43,855 nucleotides of DNA, taken from Candidatus Dadabacteria bacterium. Its GTDB lineage: Bacteria; Desulfobacterota_D; UBA1144; Nemesobacterales; CSP1-2. This document shows positions 7,650-15,332 of this stretch, piece after piece (position 1 is the first letter of the stretch; each line of letters opens with the position of its first letter). The notes below the pieces were generated by a model that searched no databases, was not told the origin of the DNA, and saw nothing but the letters and a program-made list of their open reading frames with translations. The translations under genes and the position numbers were made by a program. The stretch lies in contig JAHFBK010000002.1 of the NCBI GenBank assembly GCA_023250035.1, forward strand, positions 1-43,855. The letters are read 5' to 3'.

Positions 7650-10238
7650 ATGCCTGTAGATACACCTATGATTAAGCAGTACATGAAGATTAAAAAGCGA
7701 TACCCGGATGCCATACTCTTTTTTCGCCTAGGGGATTTCTACGAGATGTTTTTTGAAGATGCTAAGACAGCGTCAAAGATTCTTGGCATTGCCCTTACCT
7801 CTAGAAATAAATCTGAGAAAAATTCTGTTCCACTATGTGGTGTTCCATACCATAGCGCTGAGCCTTACGTTGCGAAACTCCTTCAACACGGTCATAAGGT
7901 AGCCATATGCGAACAGGTAGAGGACCCTAAGTTTGCAAAGGGGATTGTTGAAAGGAAGGTTATCAGAATTCTTACACCTGGAGTTATTCTTGATACGGAG
8001 AAGCTCGATTCTAAATCAAATAATTTCCTTGCAAGTATATACTTCGATGGGAAATCTTACGGTTTTTCATATGCTGATATATCTACTGGTGAGTTCAGGA
8101 CAACTTCGTTTTCTACCCTTGATGAACTCTTAGACGAACTTGCTCATCTTGAACCTAAAGAGATTCTTCTTACGGAAGAACTTTATCAAAATGATGAACT
8201 GTCTTCCTTTTTTTCACTCGGTTGGGATCCTCTTCTTACTAGAATCGATTCATACATCTGGGATTTGGATAGAGCGAGAGAGCTTTTAGAGGAAAAATTA
8301 GCCTCGAAAACATTAGAAGCCTTTGGGCTTGAGAATCACCCGGAATCAATTGCCGCTTGTGGGGCACTTGTTCATTATCTCAAAGAAATCCAGATAGAAG
8401 ATAAGCCTCCCTTAGAGGATCCATTATATTATCAAACTACCGATTATCTTTTAGTTGACGAATCTACAAAGAGAAACCTCGAGATTGTTAGAACAATTCG
8501 GGGTGAATCAGAAAGTGGTTCACTTTTATGGGTTCTTGATGAGACACTAACGGCAATGGGAGGGAGACTTCTTAAGAAGTGGATAAATTATCCGCTTATA
8601 GATATAGAAAAGATTAGAGAAAGGCTCAATGCCGTTGAAGAACTCAAAGAAAAACCAAGCTTTAGAAAAATGGTCAGGGGCGCCTTAAAAGAGATAAGCG
8701 ACATAGAAAGGCTTATTGGGAGAATATCTACTACCTCCGCAAGACCTAGGGACCTAGGAGCACTCAGGGATTCGTCATATTTTATCTCTAATATAAAAGG
8801 TATTCTGAGCGACTTTCAGTCCACACCACTTGCTAGAATTAGGGATGTTCTTGACGATTTAGCTGATATAAGGGAACTACTAGAGAGTTCGTTAGTTGAT
8901 GAGCCTCCGATTTCTTCTCGTGATGGAGGAATAATTAAGGACGGTTTTAACAGTGAGCTTGATGAGCTTAGGGTTACAAGGCGCGACGGAAAGAGGTGGA
9001 TATCAGCGCTTGAGACGAAAGAGAGGAAATTAGCAGGGATCAACTCGCTTAAGGTCGGATACAATAAAGTATTCGGTTATTACATCGAGGTTACAAAACC
9101 GAACCTTCATCTAGTTCCGGAGAATTATATTAGAAAGCAGACGCTGGTAAATGCGGAGAGGTTTGTTACTCCTGAGCTTAAGGAGTATGAAGAAAAGATT
9201 CTTGGGGCTGAAGAGAAGATTCTAGAACTTGAAAGGGATCTTTTTAACGAGATAAGGGAAAGGGTAGCGAAGGAATCAGAGAGAATAAGACAGACTGCTT
9301 CGCTGATAGCTGAGCTTGATGTCCTTTCTTCTCTCGCAGAGGTTGCTGATAAATACAATTACACTAAACCTGATGTAAGCGACTCAGGGATTATTGACCT
9401 TAGGGAAAGCCGGCATCCTGTTGTGGAAAGGATGGATCTAGGGGAAAGATTTGTATCAAATGACATAACGCTAGACACAGAAGAAAACCAGTTTCTCATA
9501 ATAACTGGTCCTAATATGGCTGGGAAGTCCACTCTCATTCGTCAGGTTGCGCTAATAGTTCTTATGGCTCAGATTGGAGGCTTTATTCCAGCAAGGGAGG
9601 GAAGGATTGGAATTGTAGATAGGATATTCACACGCGTTGGTGCTTCTGATAATCTAGCACGGGGACAATCAACATTCATGGTGGAGATGGTAGAGACCGC
9701 TTACATCCTGAGACATGCCACGCAAAGAAGTCTAGTGGTGCTTGATGAAATAGGGAGGGGAACAAGCACATTCGATGGGATGAGTATTGCGTGGGCTGTA
9801 GGAGAATTCCTCCACGATTTAGGATGTAGATCCCTATTTGCTACACATTACCATGAGCTTGCCCAGCTTGCCATCACAAAACGAAGGGTTAAGAACTACA
9901 ATGTCTTTGTAAAAGAGGACAAGGGAAAGGTCGTGTTTCTAAGAAAGCTCATTCCAGGCGCGGCTAGCCATAGCTATGGAATTCAGGTAGCAAGGCTAGC
10001 AGGGGTTCCTGAAAGGGTTCTTAAGACTGCGCGCGAGGTTCTATTCAAGCTTGAGAAAGCGGAATCTAATCTTGGAAGTGCTATTCGCGGCGGACAGCTT
10101 GGACTTTTTGAGAAGAAGGAAGATGAAATAGGTGATGAGGTTTTAGAGGAGATTAACAAACTCGATCCTAATTCTATGACCCCGCTCGAAGCACTCTCTA
10201 AGCTAGCTGAGATTAAAGGTAAGTTAGAGAATGAATGA
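7650..10238 (+). CDS. mutS: DNA mismatch repair protein MutS
   Basis: Mismatch-recognition ATPase of 862 residues. The N-terminal mismatch-binding domain holds the FFRLGDFYEMF stretch (Phe-X-Glu motif, GDFYE). Connector, lever and clamp domains follow. The ABC-type ATPase has Walker A GPNMAGKST (about residues 620-628), the STFMVEM signature and Walker B LVVLDEIGRGTST, then ATHYHEL. The C-terminal LDPNSMTPLEAL stretch is the usual helix-turn-helix/tetramer end. This is full-length MutS1. The promoter sits immediately before the ATG, and there is no ribosome-binding site. yraN follows after a gap that holds a repeat arm. MutL is not seen intact in the window. Confidence 0.98.
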   Translation: MPVDTPMIKQYMKIKKRYPDAILFFRLGDFYEMFFEDAKTASKILGIALTSRNKSEKNSVPLCGVPYHSAEPYVAKLLQHGHKVAICEQVEDPKFAKGIVERKVIRILTPGVILDTEKLDSKSNNFLASIYFDGKSYGFSYADISTGEFRTTSFSTLDELLDELAHLEPKEILLTEELYQNDELSSFFSLGWDPLLTRIDSYIWDLDRARELLEEKLASKTLEAFGLENHPESIAACGALVHYLKEIQIEDKPPLEDPLYYQTTDYLLVDESTKRNLEIVRTIRGESESGSLLWVLDETLTAMGGRLLKKWINYPLIDIEKIRERLNAVEELKEKPSFRKMVRGALKEISDIERLIGRISTTSARPRDLGALRDSSYFISNIKGILSDFQSTPLARIRDVLDDLADIRELLESSLVDEPPISSRDGGIIKDGFNSELDELRVTRRDGKRWISALETKERKLAGINSLKVGYNKVFGYYIEVTKPNLHLVPENYIRKQTLVNAERFVTPELKEYEEKILGAEEKILELERDLFNEIRERVAKESERIRQTASLIAELDVLSSLAEVADKYNYTKPDVSDSGIIDLRESRHPVVERMDLGERFVSNDITLDTEENQFLIITGPNMAGKSTLIRQVALIVLMAQIGGFIPAREGRIGIVDRIFTRVGASDNLARGQSTFMVEMVETAYILRHATQRSLVVLDEIGRGTSTFDGMSIAWAVGEFLHDLGCRSLFATHYHELAQLAITKRRVKNYNVFVKEDKGKVVFLRKLIPGAASHSYGIQVARLAGVPERVLKTAREVLFKLEKAESNLGSAIRGGQLGLFEKKEDEIGDEVLEEINKLDPNSMTPLEALSKLAEIKGKLENE

Positions 10239-10298
10239 TGCAAGATGCAAGAAGAATCATGTATCGTGAACGACACATCATATATCATTTTACTATTA

Positions 10299-10325
10299 GT
10301 GTAAATTCGTGCTAATTAGTGGTTA
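10299..10325. repeat. Single arm of the TTAGCCAC repeat family
   Basis: GTGTAAATTCGTGCTAATTAG followed by TGGTTA resembles GTGTAAATTCGAGTTCAATCC followed by GTGGCTAA at 43694-43722. The opposing arm is not clear. Upstream bases 10240-10290 contain a shuffled ATGCAAGATGCAAG / ATCGTGAACGACACATC stretch that also looks repeat-derived. Confidence 0.55.
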
Positions 10326-10336
10326 GGTAATTAATT

Positions 10337-10696
10337 ATGATCGATAAAAAATCCCTCGGACAAATGGGTGAGGATATAGCATCCAAGGCTCTAAAAAAGG
10401 ATGGATACCGCATTATCGAGAAAAATTTTAGATGCAAGCAGGGTGAGATAGACATCATCGCTGAGCAAAAGGGGGTTGTTTGCTTCATAGAGGTTAAAGC
10501 CCGTTCATCTGAAAACTTTGGACTGCCGGAAGAGGCTGTTACAAGTTGGAAACAGCGAAGACTCTTGGCTGCGGCTTATGTGTATCTAGAAAAAAAGAAA
10601 ATCAAATCAAAAGATTTGCGCTTTGACATAGTCTCGGTTGATCTTACGAATGAAATGGCTAGAATCTTGAAGAACGCCTTTGAAGTGAATTATTAG
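10337..10696 (+). CDS. yraN: YraN / UPF0102 family endonuclease-fold protein
   Basis: 119-residue protein of the UPF0102 (YraN) family with a Holliday-junction-resolvase/restriction-endonuclease fold; its role is not proven. The order is typical: KSLGQMGEDIASKALKKDGY helix, NFRCKQGEIDIIAEQKG with the acidic residues, FIEVKAR (the E-x-K metal-site motif), then LRFDIVSVD. It starts at ATG 10337 without a strong Shine-Dalgarno sequence. It sits downstream of mutS; the family is often near rnhB or rsmI, so this placement may be incidental. Confidence 0.92.
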   Translation: MIDKKSLGQMGEDIASKALKKDGYRIIEKNFRCKQGEIDIIAEQKGVVCFIEVKARSSENFGLPEEAVTSWKQRRLLAAAYVYLEKKKIKSKDLRFDIVSVDLTNEMARILKNAFEVNY

Positions 10697-11018
10697 GTTG
10701 AGAATACGGTCAGGGTTTTAATCGTACATTTTTCTTAATCAAGATTATCGTATCATAATACAATCCCACAATCTTCCGAATCTCAAAAATGTGTTTTACT
10801 TAGTTATTCAATTCTTTGGCATTAGACCAGAGGAGTAGAATATATGAAAACCTTATATTTCAAGACCTGATCTCATTTTCTCTCCTTGATATAAAGCCAA
10901 GAACTGACCCCTTCTTTTCCTTTGGTCTTTAATATTAAGTTTAATAGAATCATATCTACTAGAAGTAAGTGCTAAAGGATACTTATGTAAGATTTAAGAA
11001 TTAAATAGGGAAGAGTGA
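10697..11018. other. Gene-free stretch of 322 bases
   Basis: AT-rich. It contains GAACTGACCCC, a motif often found in dispersed repeats, and a tiny frame (ATG 10844, 8 codons) behind AGAGGAG. Nothing firm can be assigned. Confidence 0.5.
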
Positions 11019-11441
11019 CTACCTATGTAATTTTTTTGGACGCCTTAGTATTATAGCTGGGTATCCGTAGTCTGTATTTTTATCCAAACTGAGAACATAA
11101 TCTCTTAAAATATTTAATTCATGCTCGACATCGATATATTGTCCTAGTTTGCTGATCCATTTACCATTTTCCAATTGTCGTGCGGCATGAGTTGGTTCCC
11201 CATTATCGTCAACGAAAATTACAATTTTTTCAAAACAAGAATCAAGTTCGTAATTATCACAAGGCACGTAATCTAGAGTAGAAAAAGCCTGTATAAAAAC
11301 TTCTAAGGTTACATCTTTTGAAATACCTTTTGGCCAATATGAGTCACCTGCAGGCCACCACCATCGAGTGTCATCCCCGGCTGACAAAGCAATGCAATTA
11401 TAAGTTGGTGTTTCAGGACTACGCGCAATAACCCCGATCAT
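11019..11441 (-). CDS. DUF7689 family protein, possible papain-like cysteine hydrolase
   Basis: 140-residue protein of a family I recognise as DUF7689, function unknown. The N-terminal hallmark TPTYNCIALSAGDDTRWWWP is followed by YWP. Inference: Cys16 in YNCIA, at the start of a predicted helix, and His85 in EPTHAARQ, at the start of a beta hairpin (HAARQLENGKWISKLG), have the order and spacing of NlpC/P60 or CHAP-type cysteine hydrolases. Asp104 (YIDVEHE) is a candidate third residue. No signal peptide is present, so it acts in the cytoplasm unless exported otherwise. It is the last gene of a three-gene minus-strand cassette and starts 6 bases after the middle gene ends. Confidence 0.78.
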   Translation of the reverse strand: MIGVIARSPETPTYNCIALSAGDDTRWWWPAGDSYWPKGISKDVTLEVFIQAFSTLDYVPCDNYELDSCFEKIVIFVDDNGEPTHAARQLENGKWISKLGQYIDVEHELNILRDYVLSLDKNTDYGYPAIILRRPKKLHR

Positions 11442-11447
11442 TCATTA

Positions 11448-11873
11448 TTATTCAATATATCCGTGCTCTTTACCCCATTTTAACCAAGCTTCTCTAATTT
11501 TCATGAGATTACCTCGATCTTCTAAAGCCACGGGATCCTCCCCTGTAATGGCTCTAAGAGCCCAGGACCAGTGATTAGGTTCACGCTCAAATTCTCTAAG
11601 GATCAAAGGAATAACATCTTGTCCCATACCTATTATACGTTGGTAAGATGGATGAGTAACAATTTTTGTAGTTGATGATAGCAATAACACTTCTTTTTTC
11701 CAAGTTCTCATTAAGGTGTAAAATTTTTCTTTAGTGCTTTGTCTTGATGCAGGGAAACAAAAATGTTCAGCAAGTTCTGACATTTTTTTTAAAATAAAGT
11801 AAGATTCTATACTAATCCCAGCTGATTGATTGCCTCCAGAAGTAAGAGAATAATTAATTGCGACTCCACTCAT
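11448..11873 (-). CDS. Unnamed family protein of the TIGR04255/DUF7689 cassette
   Basis: 141-residue protein with no named family that I can assign. The C-terminal half is the conserved-looking part: HPSYQRIIGMGQDVIPLILREF, then PNHWSWALRAITGEDPV and a basic-aromatic end MKIREAWLKWGKEHGYIE. I have seen this pattern in many hypothetical proteins. The helical repeat-like layout hints at a HEAT-like or adaptor fold, which is only inference. The N-terminal 40 residues look variable. Its ATG overlaps the TGA of the upstream TIGR04255 gene by four bases (ATGA), so translation is probably coupled. DUF7689 follows 6 bases later. Confidence 0.72.
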   Translation of the reverse strand: MSGVAINYSLTSGGNQSAGISIESYFILKKMSELAEHFCFPASRQSTKEKFYTLMRTWKKEVLLLSSTTKIVTHPSYQRIIGMGQDVIPLILREFEREPNHWSWALRAITGEDPVALEDRGNLMKIREAWLKWGKEHGYIE

Positions 11874-12628
11874 TTAAACAACTCCTTTGTTTTATTTGTT
11901 AAATTCTTAAAAAAGATATCATTCTTAAATTTTCGCAATCTCAGCATAATATTCCATATTTCTTCATCCGCGGGATCTAACGTTACAATTTTAAATACAT
12001 CGATATCAAATATCAATGGTAATAATTGTTGATCGTTCTTTACTTCTGGAGATTCGGTTGCTTCTATTATAATCGCCTCAGATTCTAATTCCTTATTTTG
12101 TATTACTAATCTCATCACAACCTGAGTTAGAGCATCCGGTATCCCAGGAGCAATTTCAGGAACTGTTAGTATATATTCTTTAAGATCTTTTATAGGAAGT
12201 GGTATTTCAATCCGATTAATATAACGCAGGGCTAGTCTAGTTACATTTTTAGGTTTGACAATCTTGACATAGTAGTTCCAGAGCTCTCTTGCCTCGGTAC
12301 TAAAAACCTCCCAATTTTCATACGGTTTTAATTTGTTAAATGTAAAGCCATCTAATCTGGATTGAACAACTTTTGTATTATCAGAAGAACGAAAAAGATA
12401 TCCCTCTATTGCTCCCGAGTGTTCAGAAATTTGTGGCCCAATACCAGGTTTTAGTTCAAATTGAGTTTTCAAATGAAATTTTTCTTCTTTTTGGGGGAAA
12501 CGGGTTTTAACTTCCTCATGAAATTCACCAACAGTATTAAGGTTTACTTCCTTTGGAAGGGTAACTCGTATATCTATCAAGGCTTCAGTTATTGGCGGAT
12601 TATGAAAGATTTCGTATTCATTGATCAT
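11870..12628 (-). CDS. TIGR04255 family protein
   Basis: 252-residue protein of the sporadically distributed TIGR04255 family, function unknown. Recognisable blocks are NPPITEALIDIRV at the N-terminus, VVQSRLDGFTFNKLKPYENW in the middle and VTRLALRYINRIEIPLP, followed by a C-terminal FDIDVFK and a charged tail. It is soluble with no membrane segment. It is the first gene of a three-gene operon: four-base overlap with the next gene and a promoter-like pair 48-75 bases upstream. The family is known for patchy distribution, which fits an accessory or mobile role. No strong Shine-Dalgarno sequence precedes ATG 12628. Confidence 0.85.
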   Translation of the reverse strand: MINEYEIFHNPPITEALIDIRVTLPKEVNLNTVGEFHEEVKTRFPQKEEKFHLKTQFELKPGIGPQISEHSGAIEGYLFRSSDNTKVVQSRLDGFTFNKLKPYENWEVFSTEARELWNYYVKIVKPKNVTRLALRYINRIEIPLPIKDLKEYILTVPEIAPGIPDALTQVVMRLVIQNKELESEAIIIEATESPEVKNDQQLLPLIFDIDVFKIVTLDPADEEIWNIMLRLRKFKNDIFFKNLTNKTKELFK

Positions 12629-12675
12629 ATTTTTCTATTAGAAGGTTTTAATCTGAATTAAAGCTTTTTATGCAA

Positions 12676-12703
12676 ATTATAGCATTCATGATATTCGATG
12701 CAA
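12676..12703 (-). promoter_or_regulatory. Predicted promoter of the TIGR04255 cassette
   Basis: Reading the minus strand, TTGCAT (12703-12698) and TATAAT (12681-12676) are 16 bases apart. This would give a 5' leader of about 40 bases before ATG 12628. The rest of 12629-12942 is AT-rich with no gene visible. Confidence 0.55.
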
Positions 12704-12942
12704 ATAATTTGATAATAATAGTAGATTGTGGGCAGGGTCTTGGATTGTGAATTATTTTTATTAACTATCTTGGTTATTGTGCCATTGTGCAAACCCAAAC
12801 CCTACCAAAATCTAGAAGCGTGTACACATAATTTAAGTGCGCATCCTGCATCAAAGATTCCTTATCAGTACGAACGAGATTAAAAAATTTCCACTTTAAA
12901 ACGAATATTTAATGATTATATTGAAAGTTAAGGTGATAAGAT

Positions 12943-13176
12943 ATGGACAAACAATTTGATGGCTATACAGCTATACAAACTGCGGAGGGTTTCCACGTGG
13001 TGTTTCACGATTCTTCGAGAAACCCACTAGATGTAAAATTTAACGATTTTCAAGAATTCGCAAATAAATACAGCCAGGAAATATTGGCTGGAAAACTTCC
13101 AAAACTTTCTGAACAAGAAGCAGTTTTGCTTTCGCTATGGGAGTTAATGCTTATACCAGCTAACACAATACATTAA
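12943..13176 (+). CDS. Small hypothetical protein
   Basis: 77-residue predicted soluble protein, acidic to neutral, with no family recognised. The first half has alternating strand-like residues (YTAIQTAEGFHVVFHD) and the second half looks helical (FQEFANKYSQEIL, LSEQEAVLLSLWELML). AAGGTGAT precedes the ATG at a reasonable distance. It stands alone between the cassette and groES on the opposite strand to the cassette; it could be a small regulator or an orphan. Confidence 0.55.
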   Translation: MDKQFDGYTAIQTAEGFHVVFHDSSRNPLDVKFNDFQEFANKYSQEILAGKLPKLSEQEAVLLSLWELMLIPANTIH

Positions 13177-13290
13177 GGTAGTGAGATCGGGGTTCTATCC
13201 ATATATATCGAGATTTAGGTCAACCTTATTTAAACTGACCTTTTCTTGAATAGGTTTGTAAATAGATAGCATCCTACGTCATTATTACTC

Positions 13291-13383: not shown

Positions 13384-13674
13384 ATGAATGTAAGACCACT
13401 TCACGATAAGATTTTAATCAAAAGAATAGATGCCCCCCAGATGACAAAGGGCGGAATTGTCATTCCGGATACTGTCAAGGAAAAGCCACAGGAGGGAAAG
13501 GTAGTAGCTACTGGTAAAGGTAGGATTCTAGAGGATGGTAAGGTTGTTCCATTAGCGGTGAAGAAAGGAGACAGGATACTCTTTGGCAAATATGGGGGAA
13601 CAGAGATTAAACTCGAGGGTGAGGATTATATAATCCTAGATGAAAATGAGGTTTTGGCTATAATCGAAGAATAA
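13384..13674 (+). CDS. groES: Co-chaperonin GroES
   Basis: 96-residue GroES (Hsp10), the heptameric lid of GroEL. It has the N-terminal VRPLHDKILIKR, the mobile loop region around APQMTKGGIVIPDTVKEKPQ, and C-terminal GGTEIKLEGEDYIILDENEVLAII. AGGAGG lies 7 bases before the ATG. It is the first gene of the CIRCE-controlled operon, with groEL 23 bases downstream. Confidence 0.98.
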   Translation: MNVRPLHDKILIKRIDAPQMTKGGIVIPDTVKEKPQEGKVVATGKGRILEDGKVVPLAVKKGDRILFGKYGGTEIKLEGEDYIILDENEVLAIIEE

Positions 13675-13682
13675 ATTTTTAA

Positions 13683-15332
<1,650 letters not shown>

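What the first reader, a model, noticed from the sequence alone, without database searches (positions are those of the whole stretch)
11019..12703. Three-gene cassette TIGR04255 - unnamed family - DUF7689: candidate undescribed system
Three poorly characterised genes are packed on the minus strand with an ATGA overlap and a 6-base gap, their own promoter, and gene-free flanks on both sides. TIGR04255 is known as a sporadically distributed family, and such tight cassettes of patchy genes often encode defence, toxin-antitoxin or stress modules. The last protein carries a Cys16...His85...Asp104 layout that fits a papain-like (NlpC/P60 or CHAP-type) hydrolase, so an effector with two accessory or regulatory partners is a testable model.
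Basis: partly seen in the sequence, partly recalled or inferred. Interest (0 to 1): 0.75.

Follow-up and report, generated by a model that had tools for sequence, protein, structure and literature searches.

The report
Modular three-gene toxin-antitoxin-like cassette
The three genes are one version of a widespread, apparently undescribed bacterial gene cassette in which a constant first protein (TIGR04255) is followed by a swappable antitoxin-like gene and a swappable toxin-like gene, here a candidate cysteine hydrolase, suggesting a new variant of three-part toxin-antitoxin systems.

Summary
In detail: TIGR04255 (12628-11870), a ~92-residue family with a 48-residue N-terminal extension ('MID', 11873-11448) and DUF7689 (11441-11019) lie head to tail on the minus strand with an ATGA overlap and a 6-base gap. 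The trio recurs in at least ten loci of several phyla; MID-DUF7689 also recurs without TIGR04255. The cassette is an accessory insertion: in four same-family genomes yraN and groES are only 61-284 bp apart. The larger result is that TIGR04255 is normally the first gene of compact cassettes whose second and third genes are exchanged as a unit. In 83 classified cassettes the third slot holds PIN, MazF/PemK, HEPN, zeta or HicA-like toxins (18) or uncharacterised families, among them DUF7689 (10). I infer a tripartite toxin-antitoxin-like module: DUF7689 as candidate toxin (AlphaFold pLDDT 91; invariant Cys16, near-invariant His85/Asp104; weak NlpC/P60-papain matches), MID as antitoxin, TIGR04255 as a dedicated partner that reads a short tag in the antitoxin's N-terminal extension. 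A motif learned from an unrelated antitoxin family reappears there (p about 7e-5 to 8e-5). It works like TAC systems but is not a member: TIGR04255 is not SecB-like. No activity was tested.

The parts
11870..12628 (-). TIGR04255 protein (252 aa), constant first component; predicted two-fold repeated alpha/beta fold
   Evidence: E 8.8e-41; AlphaFold pLDDT 85.5, pTM 0.82; Foldseek best match TBP, E 2e-4, TM about 0.3-0.4
11448..11873 (-). MID ('HPSYQ' family, 141 aa), candidate antitoxin; HEAT-like C-terminal core of about 92 aa (HEAT-likeness is my reading of the sequence)
   Evidence: no family hit; adjacent to DUF7689 in 24 of 28 genome loci
11730..11873 (-). N-terminal extension of MID (residues 1-48)
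   Evidence: 46-72 residues in all 10 TIGR04255-linked loci; impossible in 12 of 28 loci without TIGR04255, Fisher p 0.016; dN/dS about 0.13-0.32 in four close pairs
11802..11831 (-). candidate TIGR04255-binding tag NQSAGISIES (MID residues 15-24)
   Evidence: matches a motif trained on an unrelated antitoxin family: p 0.004 by shuffles, 0.0037 against 542 real N-termini
11019..11441 (-). DUF7689 protein (140 aa), candidate toxin/effector with Cys16, His85, Asp104
   Evidence: E 1.2e-34; conservation Cys 24/24, His 23/23, Asp 22/23; AlphaFold pLDDT 91.4; weak NlpC/P60-papain matches
12676..12704 (-). promoter-like site TTTGCA-17-TATAAT with extended -10
   Evidence: 10 of 12 matches; not in excess over shuffles
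10786..13286 (.). accessory insertion between yraN and groES that carries the cassette
   Evidence: yraN and groES 61-284 bp apart in G002, G003, G004, G006; homology to same-genus G001 stops at 10785; GC 0.34 against 0.40 for the window

Best explanation
The cassette is one variant of a modular, tripartite toxin-antitoxin-like system. Gene 3 (DUF7689) is the toxin/effector, probably a papain/NlpC-P60-like cysteine hydrolase or transferase using Cys16, His85 and Asp104. Gene 2 (MID) is the antitoxin, which binds DUF7689 through its core. Gene 1 (TIGR04255) is a dedicated partner that binds a short tag in MID's N-terminal extension (residues about 15-24, G-hydrophobic-S-x-E-A/S) and keeps the antitoxin folded, stable or engaged; loss or titration of TIGR04255, for example by a phage product, would free the toxin. 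Shown here: gene order, recurrence, exchange of gene 2-gene 3 pairs behind a persistent TIGR04255, known toxins in slot 3 of sister cassettes, the conserved extension and shared motif, and accessory insertion. Inferred: toxicity, neutralisation, binding, trigger.
For: Trio in ten loci: window, L003, L009, L025, L027, L029, L032, L063, L065, L086. Slot 3 in 83 classified TIGR04255 cassettes: PIN 9, MazF 4, HEPN 3, zeta 1, HicA-like 1, DUF7689 10, the rest mostly uncharacterised recurrent families; PemK E 2e-13 and PIN up to 6e-19, zeta toxin E 3e-12, annotated independently on a Vibrio plasmid. Slot-3 class switches on the TIGR04255 tree: 17 changes for 10 classes, shuffled mean 38.8. ATGA coupling in 33 of 62. 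Extension under purifying selection. Motif trained on WDG-type middle proteins found in MID N-termini (Fisher 6.8e-5; 8e-5 against real N-termini) and not in classes outside that TIGR04255 clade. Empty sites. TIGR04255 cassettes on phage-like contigs and plasmids.
Against: Most slot-3 families (about 52 of 83) have no known activity. DUF7689's fold match is not significant (best PDB E 0.08). At least five TIGR04255 genes have no cassette behind them (L085, L087, L106, L111, L098). The tag motif appeared only in the third analysis, with a training set picked by TIGR04255 clade after I had seen candidate matches (searches did not show it); L027, L065 and L025 lack it. MID-DUF7689 also occurs without TIGR04255. 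Start choice favoured short overlaps. No toxicity, binding or defence data.
Confidence: 0.55

Rival explanations
1. TIGR04255 is a transcriptional regulator of a two-gene toxin-antitoxin pair, as omega is in omega-epsilon-zeta or PaaR in PaaR-PaaA-ParE; the antitoxin extension then serves DNA binding or folding.
For: Order regulator-antitoxin-toxin is the same; a zeta toxin occurs in slot 3; the best fold match of TIGR04255 is the DNA-binding TBP.
Against: TIGR04255 proteins are mostly acidic (median pI 5.9, window 5.6); TM-scores to TBP are only 0.3-0.4; no helix-turn-helix found; does not explain the tag motif that follows the TIGR04255 clade.
Confidence: 0.17
2. Not a toxin-antitoxin module: DUF7689 is a hydrolase or transferase that modifies a partner or peptide, with MID and TIGR04255 as accessory factors in a stress or maturation function.
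For: DUF7689 resembles NlpC/P60-type enzymes, most of which are not toxins; many slot-3 families are uncharacterised.
Against: Five unrelated toxin families share the same slot with the same coupling; patchy distribution (MID 4/58, DUF7689 4/58 genomes of the phylum) and accessory insertion are unlike a housekeeping function.
Confidence: 0.18
3. MID-DUF7689 is an ordinary two-gene toxin-antitoxin pair and TIGR04255 is a phage sensor that holds the complex inactive, so the trio is chiefly an anti-phage system (a special case of the best explanation, counted apart).
For: Phage contigs carry MID without DUF7689 (L034, L037, L039), as a phage-borne antitoxin would; TIGR04255 cassettes lie on phage-like contigs; CmdTAC senses capsid this way (PMC11618068).
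Against: No PADLOC match; defence-island enrichment not tested; lone phage MID could have another role.
Confidence: 0.25

Closest known systems
Toxin-antitoxin-chaperone (TAC) systems with SecB-like chaperones, e.g. HigBA1-SecB(TA) of M. tuberculosis and CmdTAC
   Same: Three genes: toxin, antitoxin and a dedicated third protein; toxins of several RNase families; antitoxin carries an extra terminal extension; dissimilar antitoxins use the same kind of partner (PMC5105189, PMC11618068).
   Different: TIGR04255 (about 250 aa) has no SecB similarity by sequence or among the 50 best fold matches; the extension is N-terminal, not a C-terminal ChAD; the partner gene comes first and the toxin last.
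omega-epsilon-zeta and PaaR-PaaA-ParE three-component modules (from my own knowledge)
   Same: Third protein first, antitoxin second, toxin third; a zeta toxin occurs behind one TIGR04255.
   Different: Their first genes are small DNA-binding regulators (ribbon-helix-helix or HTH); TIGR04255 is a larger alpha/beta protein without such a domain.
Type II modules VapBC, MazEF, HicAB, HEPN/MNT
   Same: The same toxin families fill slot 3 of sister cassettes.
   Different: Those are two-gene modules; here the antitoxin has an N-terminal extension and a TIGR04255 gene is coupled upstream.
NlpC/P60 and CHAP papain-like hydrolases
   Same: Cys at a helix start, His and Asp on adjacent strands; they dominate the weak fold matches of DUF7689.
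   Different: No significant match; no signal peptide or cell-wall-binding domain noted; TM-score about 0.3 in the PDB.
Panacea-domain hyperpromiscuous antitoxins (PMC8832971)
   Same: One conserved component paired with many toxin families.
   Different: There the constant part is the antitoxin domain itself; here it is a separate protein and both antitoxin and toxin vary.

Membership tests
TIGR04255 (NCBIfam) | Score above the curated cut-off of 30 bits over the whole length | tested here: met
   140.4 bits, residues 8-252 on profile 2-252
DUF7689 (PF24738) | Score above the gathering cut-off of 22.6 bits | tested here: met
   120 bits
TIGR04255-antitoxin-toxin cassette (defined here) | TIGR04255 first, tightly coupled to two downstream co-directional genes, third gene from the exchangeable set | tested here: met
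TAC system | SecB-like chaperone as third component | tested here: not met
   no SecB by profile search of the PDB at E <= 1 or in the 50 best fold matches
TAC system | C-terminal chaperone-addiction extension on the antitoxin | tested here: not met
   the extra segment of MID is N-terminal
TAC system | Third protein stabilises the antitoxin and is needed for neutralisation | not testable with these tools
   needs an experiment
NlpC/P60 / papain-like cysteine hydrolase | Conserved catalytic Cys and His with a third polar residue | tested here: met
   Cys16 24/24, His85 23/23, Asp104 22/23
NlpC/P60 / papain-like cysteine hydrolase | Significant fold match with the catalytic residues superposed | tested here: inconclusive
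   right ranking, best E 0.08 in the PDB and 0.004 in BFVD to an unnamed protein; residue superposition not available
Type II toxin-antitoxin module | Toxin inhibits growth and antitoxin neutralises it | not testable with these tools
   needs an experiment
Known anti-phage defence system (PADLOC) | Match to a PADLOC model | tested here: not met
   no hit for any of the three proteins

The most novel reading that the evidence does not exclude
TIGR04255 defines a broad, undescribed superfamily of tripartite toxin-antitoxin/defence systems in which a TBP-like pseudo-dimeric protein reads an N-terminal peptide tag on exchangeable antitoxins; the window's variant arms a papain-like cysteine hydrolase, an unusual enzyme class for a chromosomal TA toxin, and phages counter it with a solitary antitoxin (MID).
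Probability: 0.3. Interest if true: 0.85.

Novelty: new variant of a known kind. Interest (0 to 1): 0.7.

Why it matters
If right, a large 'sporadic' family of unknown function (13 of 58 genomes of this phylum and 41 of 246 in the planctomycete sample) becomes the common partner of many toxin families, and the uncharacterised third-slot families, DUF7689 among them, become candidate toxins. It would be a second, SecB-independent solution to controlling a toxin through a dedicated antitoxin partner, with a short peptide tag that makes the binding question directly testable.

Tried and rejected
Literature: no paper in the library names TIGR04255 or DUF7689. Plasmid tblastn with MID and DUF7689: none. 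Viral-contig scans with close TIGR04255 or DUF7689 alignments: none; alignments too diverse for back-translation; one pattern scan lost to a one-base spacer error, repeated correctly. TIGR04255 as a SecB relative: rejected. Motif search over mixed N-termini found homologous MID segments instead of a tag; a first WDG-only run was not above shuffles; the final test used a larger, clade-restricted training set. Extension motif across all classes: rejected; PIN, CDL, AFLR and MazF middle proteins lack it. No E. coli copy of the zeta-toxin cassette; no TIGR04255 in the INPHARED phage collection with the L119 query.

Full report
OBSERVATION. Families are TIGR04255 and DUF7689; the middle protein, called MID here, has no family in Pfam, NCBIfam or PADLOC. 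The window belongs to a 2.39 Mb, 224-contig assembly; same-order loci from the public collection are titled Candidatus Dadabacteria.

RECURRENCE. A scan with a MID alignment gave 28 genome loci and 8 viral contigs. DUF7689 follows MID directly in 24 of the 28, in Planctomycetes, Bacteroidota, Acidobacteria, Nitrospira, Dehalococcoidia, Deltaproteobacteria and others. The full trio is in ten loci: the window, L003, L009, L025, L027, L029, L032, L063, L065 and L086. So the pair is an autonomous unit and TIGR04255 an optional, recurrent first gene.

TIGR04255 IS THE CONSTANT PART OF A MODULAR CASSETTE. Reading around TIGR04255 genes elsewhere shows the same plan with different second and third genes. 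My profile-based classification gives 83 cassettes: slot 3 holds PIN 9, MazF/PemK 4, HEPN 3, zeta 1, HicA-like 1, DUF7689 10, and recurrent uncharacterised families that I label GRAD 18 (+3 alike), CDL 16, AFLR 7 (+1), SFW 7, with 3 unclassified. Representatives were checked with Pfam: PIN up to 5.8e-19, PemK 2.2e-13, HEPN 0.0016 (below its cut-off), HicA 0.057 (weak), zeta toxin 3.1e-12. The zeta case is annotated on a Vibrio plasmid as TIGR04255 - hypothetical - zeta toxin family protein. Slot-2 proteins give weak antitoxin-type hits (Xre-like HTH in L091, PHD-like in L100; HEAT in L121 and RnlB antitoxin in L044). Coupling is tight: of 62 cassettes, 33 have a 4-base overlap and all start within 10 bases of the TIGR04255 stop (the start choice favoured short overlaps). 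A few TIGR04255 genes stand alone (L085, L087, L106, L111, L098).

EXCHANGE. On a 64-sequence TIGR04255 tree slot-3 classes cluster but switch: 17 changes for 10 classes against 38.8 in shuffles; MazF (L088) beside CDL (L096), PIN (L054) beside HicA-like (L100), SFW (L121) beside DUF7689 (L025). The gene 2-gene 3 pair is thus replaced behind a persisting TIGR04255.

THE TAG. In all ten TIGR04255-linked loci MID has 46-72 residues before its core; in 12 of 28 loci without TIGR04255 an in-frame stop allows at most 25 (Fisher p 0.016). The extension is protein-coding and constrained: dN/dS about 0.13-0.32 in four close pairs. A 10-residue motif trained only on N-termini of WDG-type middle proteins (77.9 bits against 44.2 +/- 4.9 shuffled) scores in MID N-termini: window NQSAGISIES p 0.004, L003 0.011, L009 0.0065, L086 0.011, combined 6.8e-5; SFW-type proteins of the same clade 0.048; other classes 0.33-0.79; the remainder of the proteins 0.12. 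Against 542 real N-termini the MID result is 8e-5. Two earlier attempts did not show it, the training set was chosen by clade after I had seen candidate matches, and three MID extensions lack the motif, so this is suggestive evidence, not proof.

STRUCTURES. DUF7689: AlphaFold pLDDT 91.4, pTM 0.86; Cys16 starts a helix, His85 and Asp104 lie on strands; conservation Cys 24/24, His 23/23, Asp 22/23. PDB and BFVD matches are weak but enriched in NlpC/P60, CHAP and AvrPphB-like folds. TIGR04255: pLDDT 85.5, pTM 0.82, a duplicated alpha/beta arrangement with TBP as the best match (E 2e-4, TM 0.3-0.4), not SecB.

MOBILITY. In G002, G003, G004 and G006 yraN and groES are 61-284 bp apart; in the same-genus G001 homology ends at window 10785 and a ClpP-like gene follows; in the window the gap is about 2.6 kb. 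The inserted stretch has GC 0.34 against 0.40. G002 carries its trio elsewhere (contig C187). TIGR04255 cassettes also lie on phage-like contigs and plasmids, and phage contigs carry MID without DUF7689, in L034 between an exonuclease and a T4-type RNA ligase/tail-fibre attachment gene.

HOW IT PROBABLY WORKS. Slot 3 is a toxin slot, so DUF7689 is the candidate toxin and MID the antitoxin; TIGR04255 most likely binds the antitoxin's N-terminal tag and makes neutralisation depend on itself, as SecB-like chaperones do through C-terminal ChAD extensions in TAC systems (PMC5105189), where phage capsid can release the toxin (CmdTAC, PMC11618068). Anatomy, recurrence, exchange, insertion and the shared motif are shown; toxicity, neutralisation, binding and trigger are inferred.

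VERDICT. It works like a TAC system but fails two defining features of that family, so it is filed as a new variant of tripartite toxin-antitoxin systems. No paper in the searched library mentions either named family; subscription journals and preprints were not searched.

Noticed in passing
window 10786-13286; L165 (G001:C3:1-2200): The yraN-groES junction looks like an insertion hotspot: the same-genus genome G001 has a ClpP-like protease gene at the same breakpoint (window 10785) where the window has the cassette.
   Followed up: partly
window 12943-13176 (+): A 77-aa ORF inside the inserted stretch, divergent from the cassette, without any Pfam, NCBIfam or PADLOC match.
   Followed up: no
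window about 10230-10340: A roughly 90-bp stretch between mutS and yraN matches many other contigs of the same genome and of relatives at 71-81% identity: a dispersed short repeat.
   Followed up: no
G000:C49:274-1403 against window 13384-14500: A second groES-groEL copy in the same genome, 78% identical at the DNA level.
   Followed up: no
L034:6022-6318; L037:5941-6297; L039:5527-6228: Phage contigs carry the MID family without DUF7689, as expected if phages use a solitary antitoxin as counter-defence.
   Followed up: partly
L012: The record is titled Klebsiella pneumoniae MAG, yet the locus carries a MID-DUF7689 pair otherwise seen in environmental phyla; the label may be wrong.
   Followed up: no
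L071:2715-3461, L048:2713-3111, L057:291-740, L121:4316-4831: Four recurrent uncharacterised third-slot families (labels CDL, GRAD, AFLR, SFW) that by position are further candidate toxins.
   Followed up: partly
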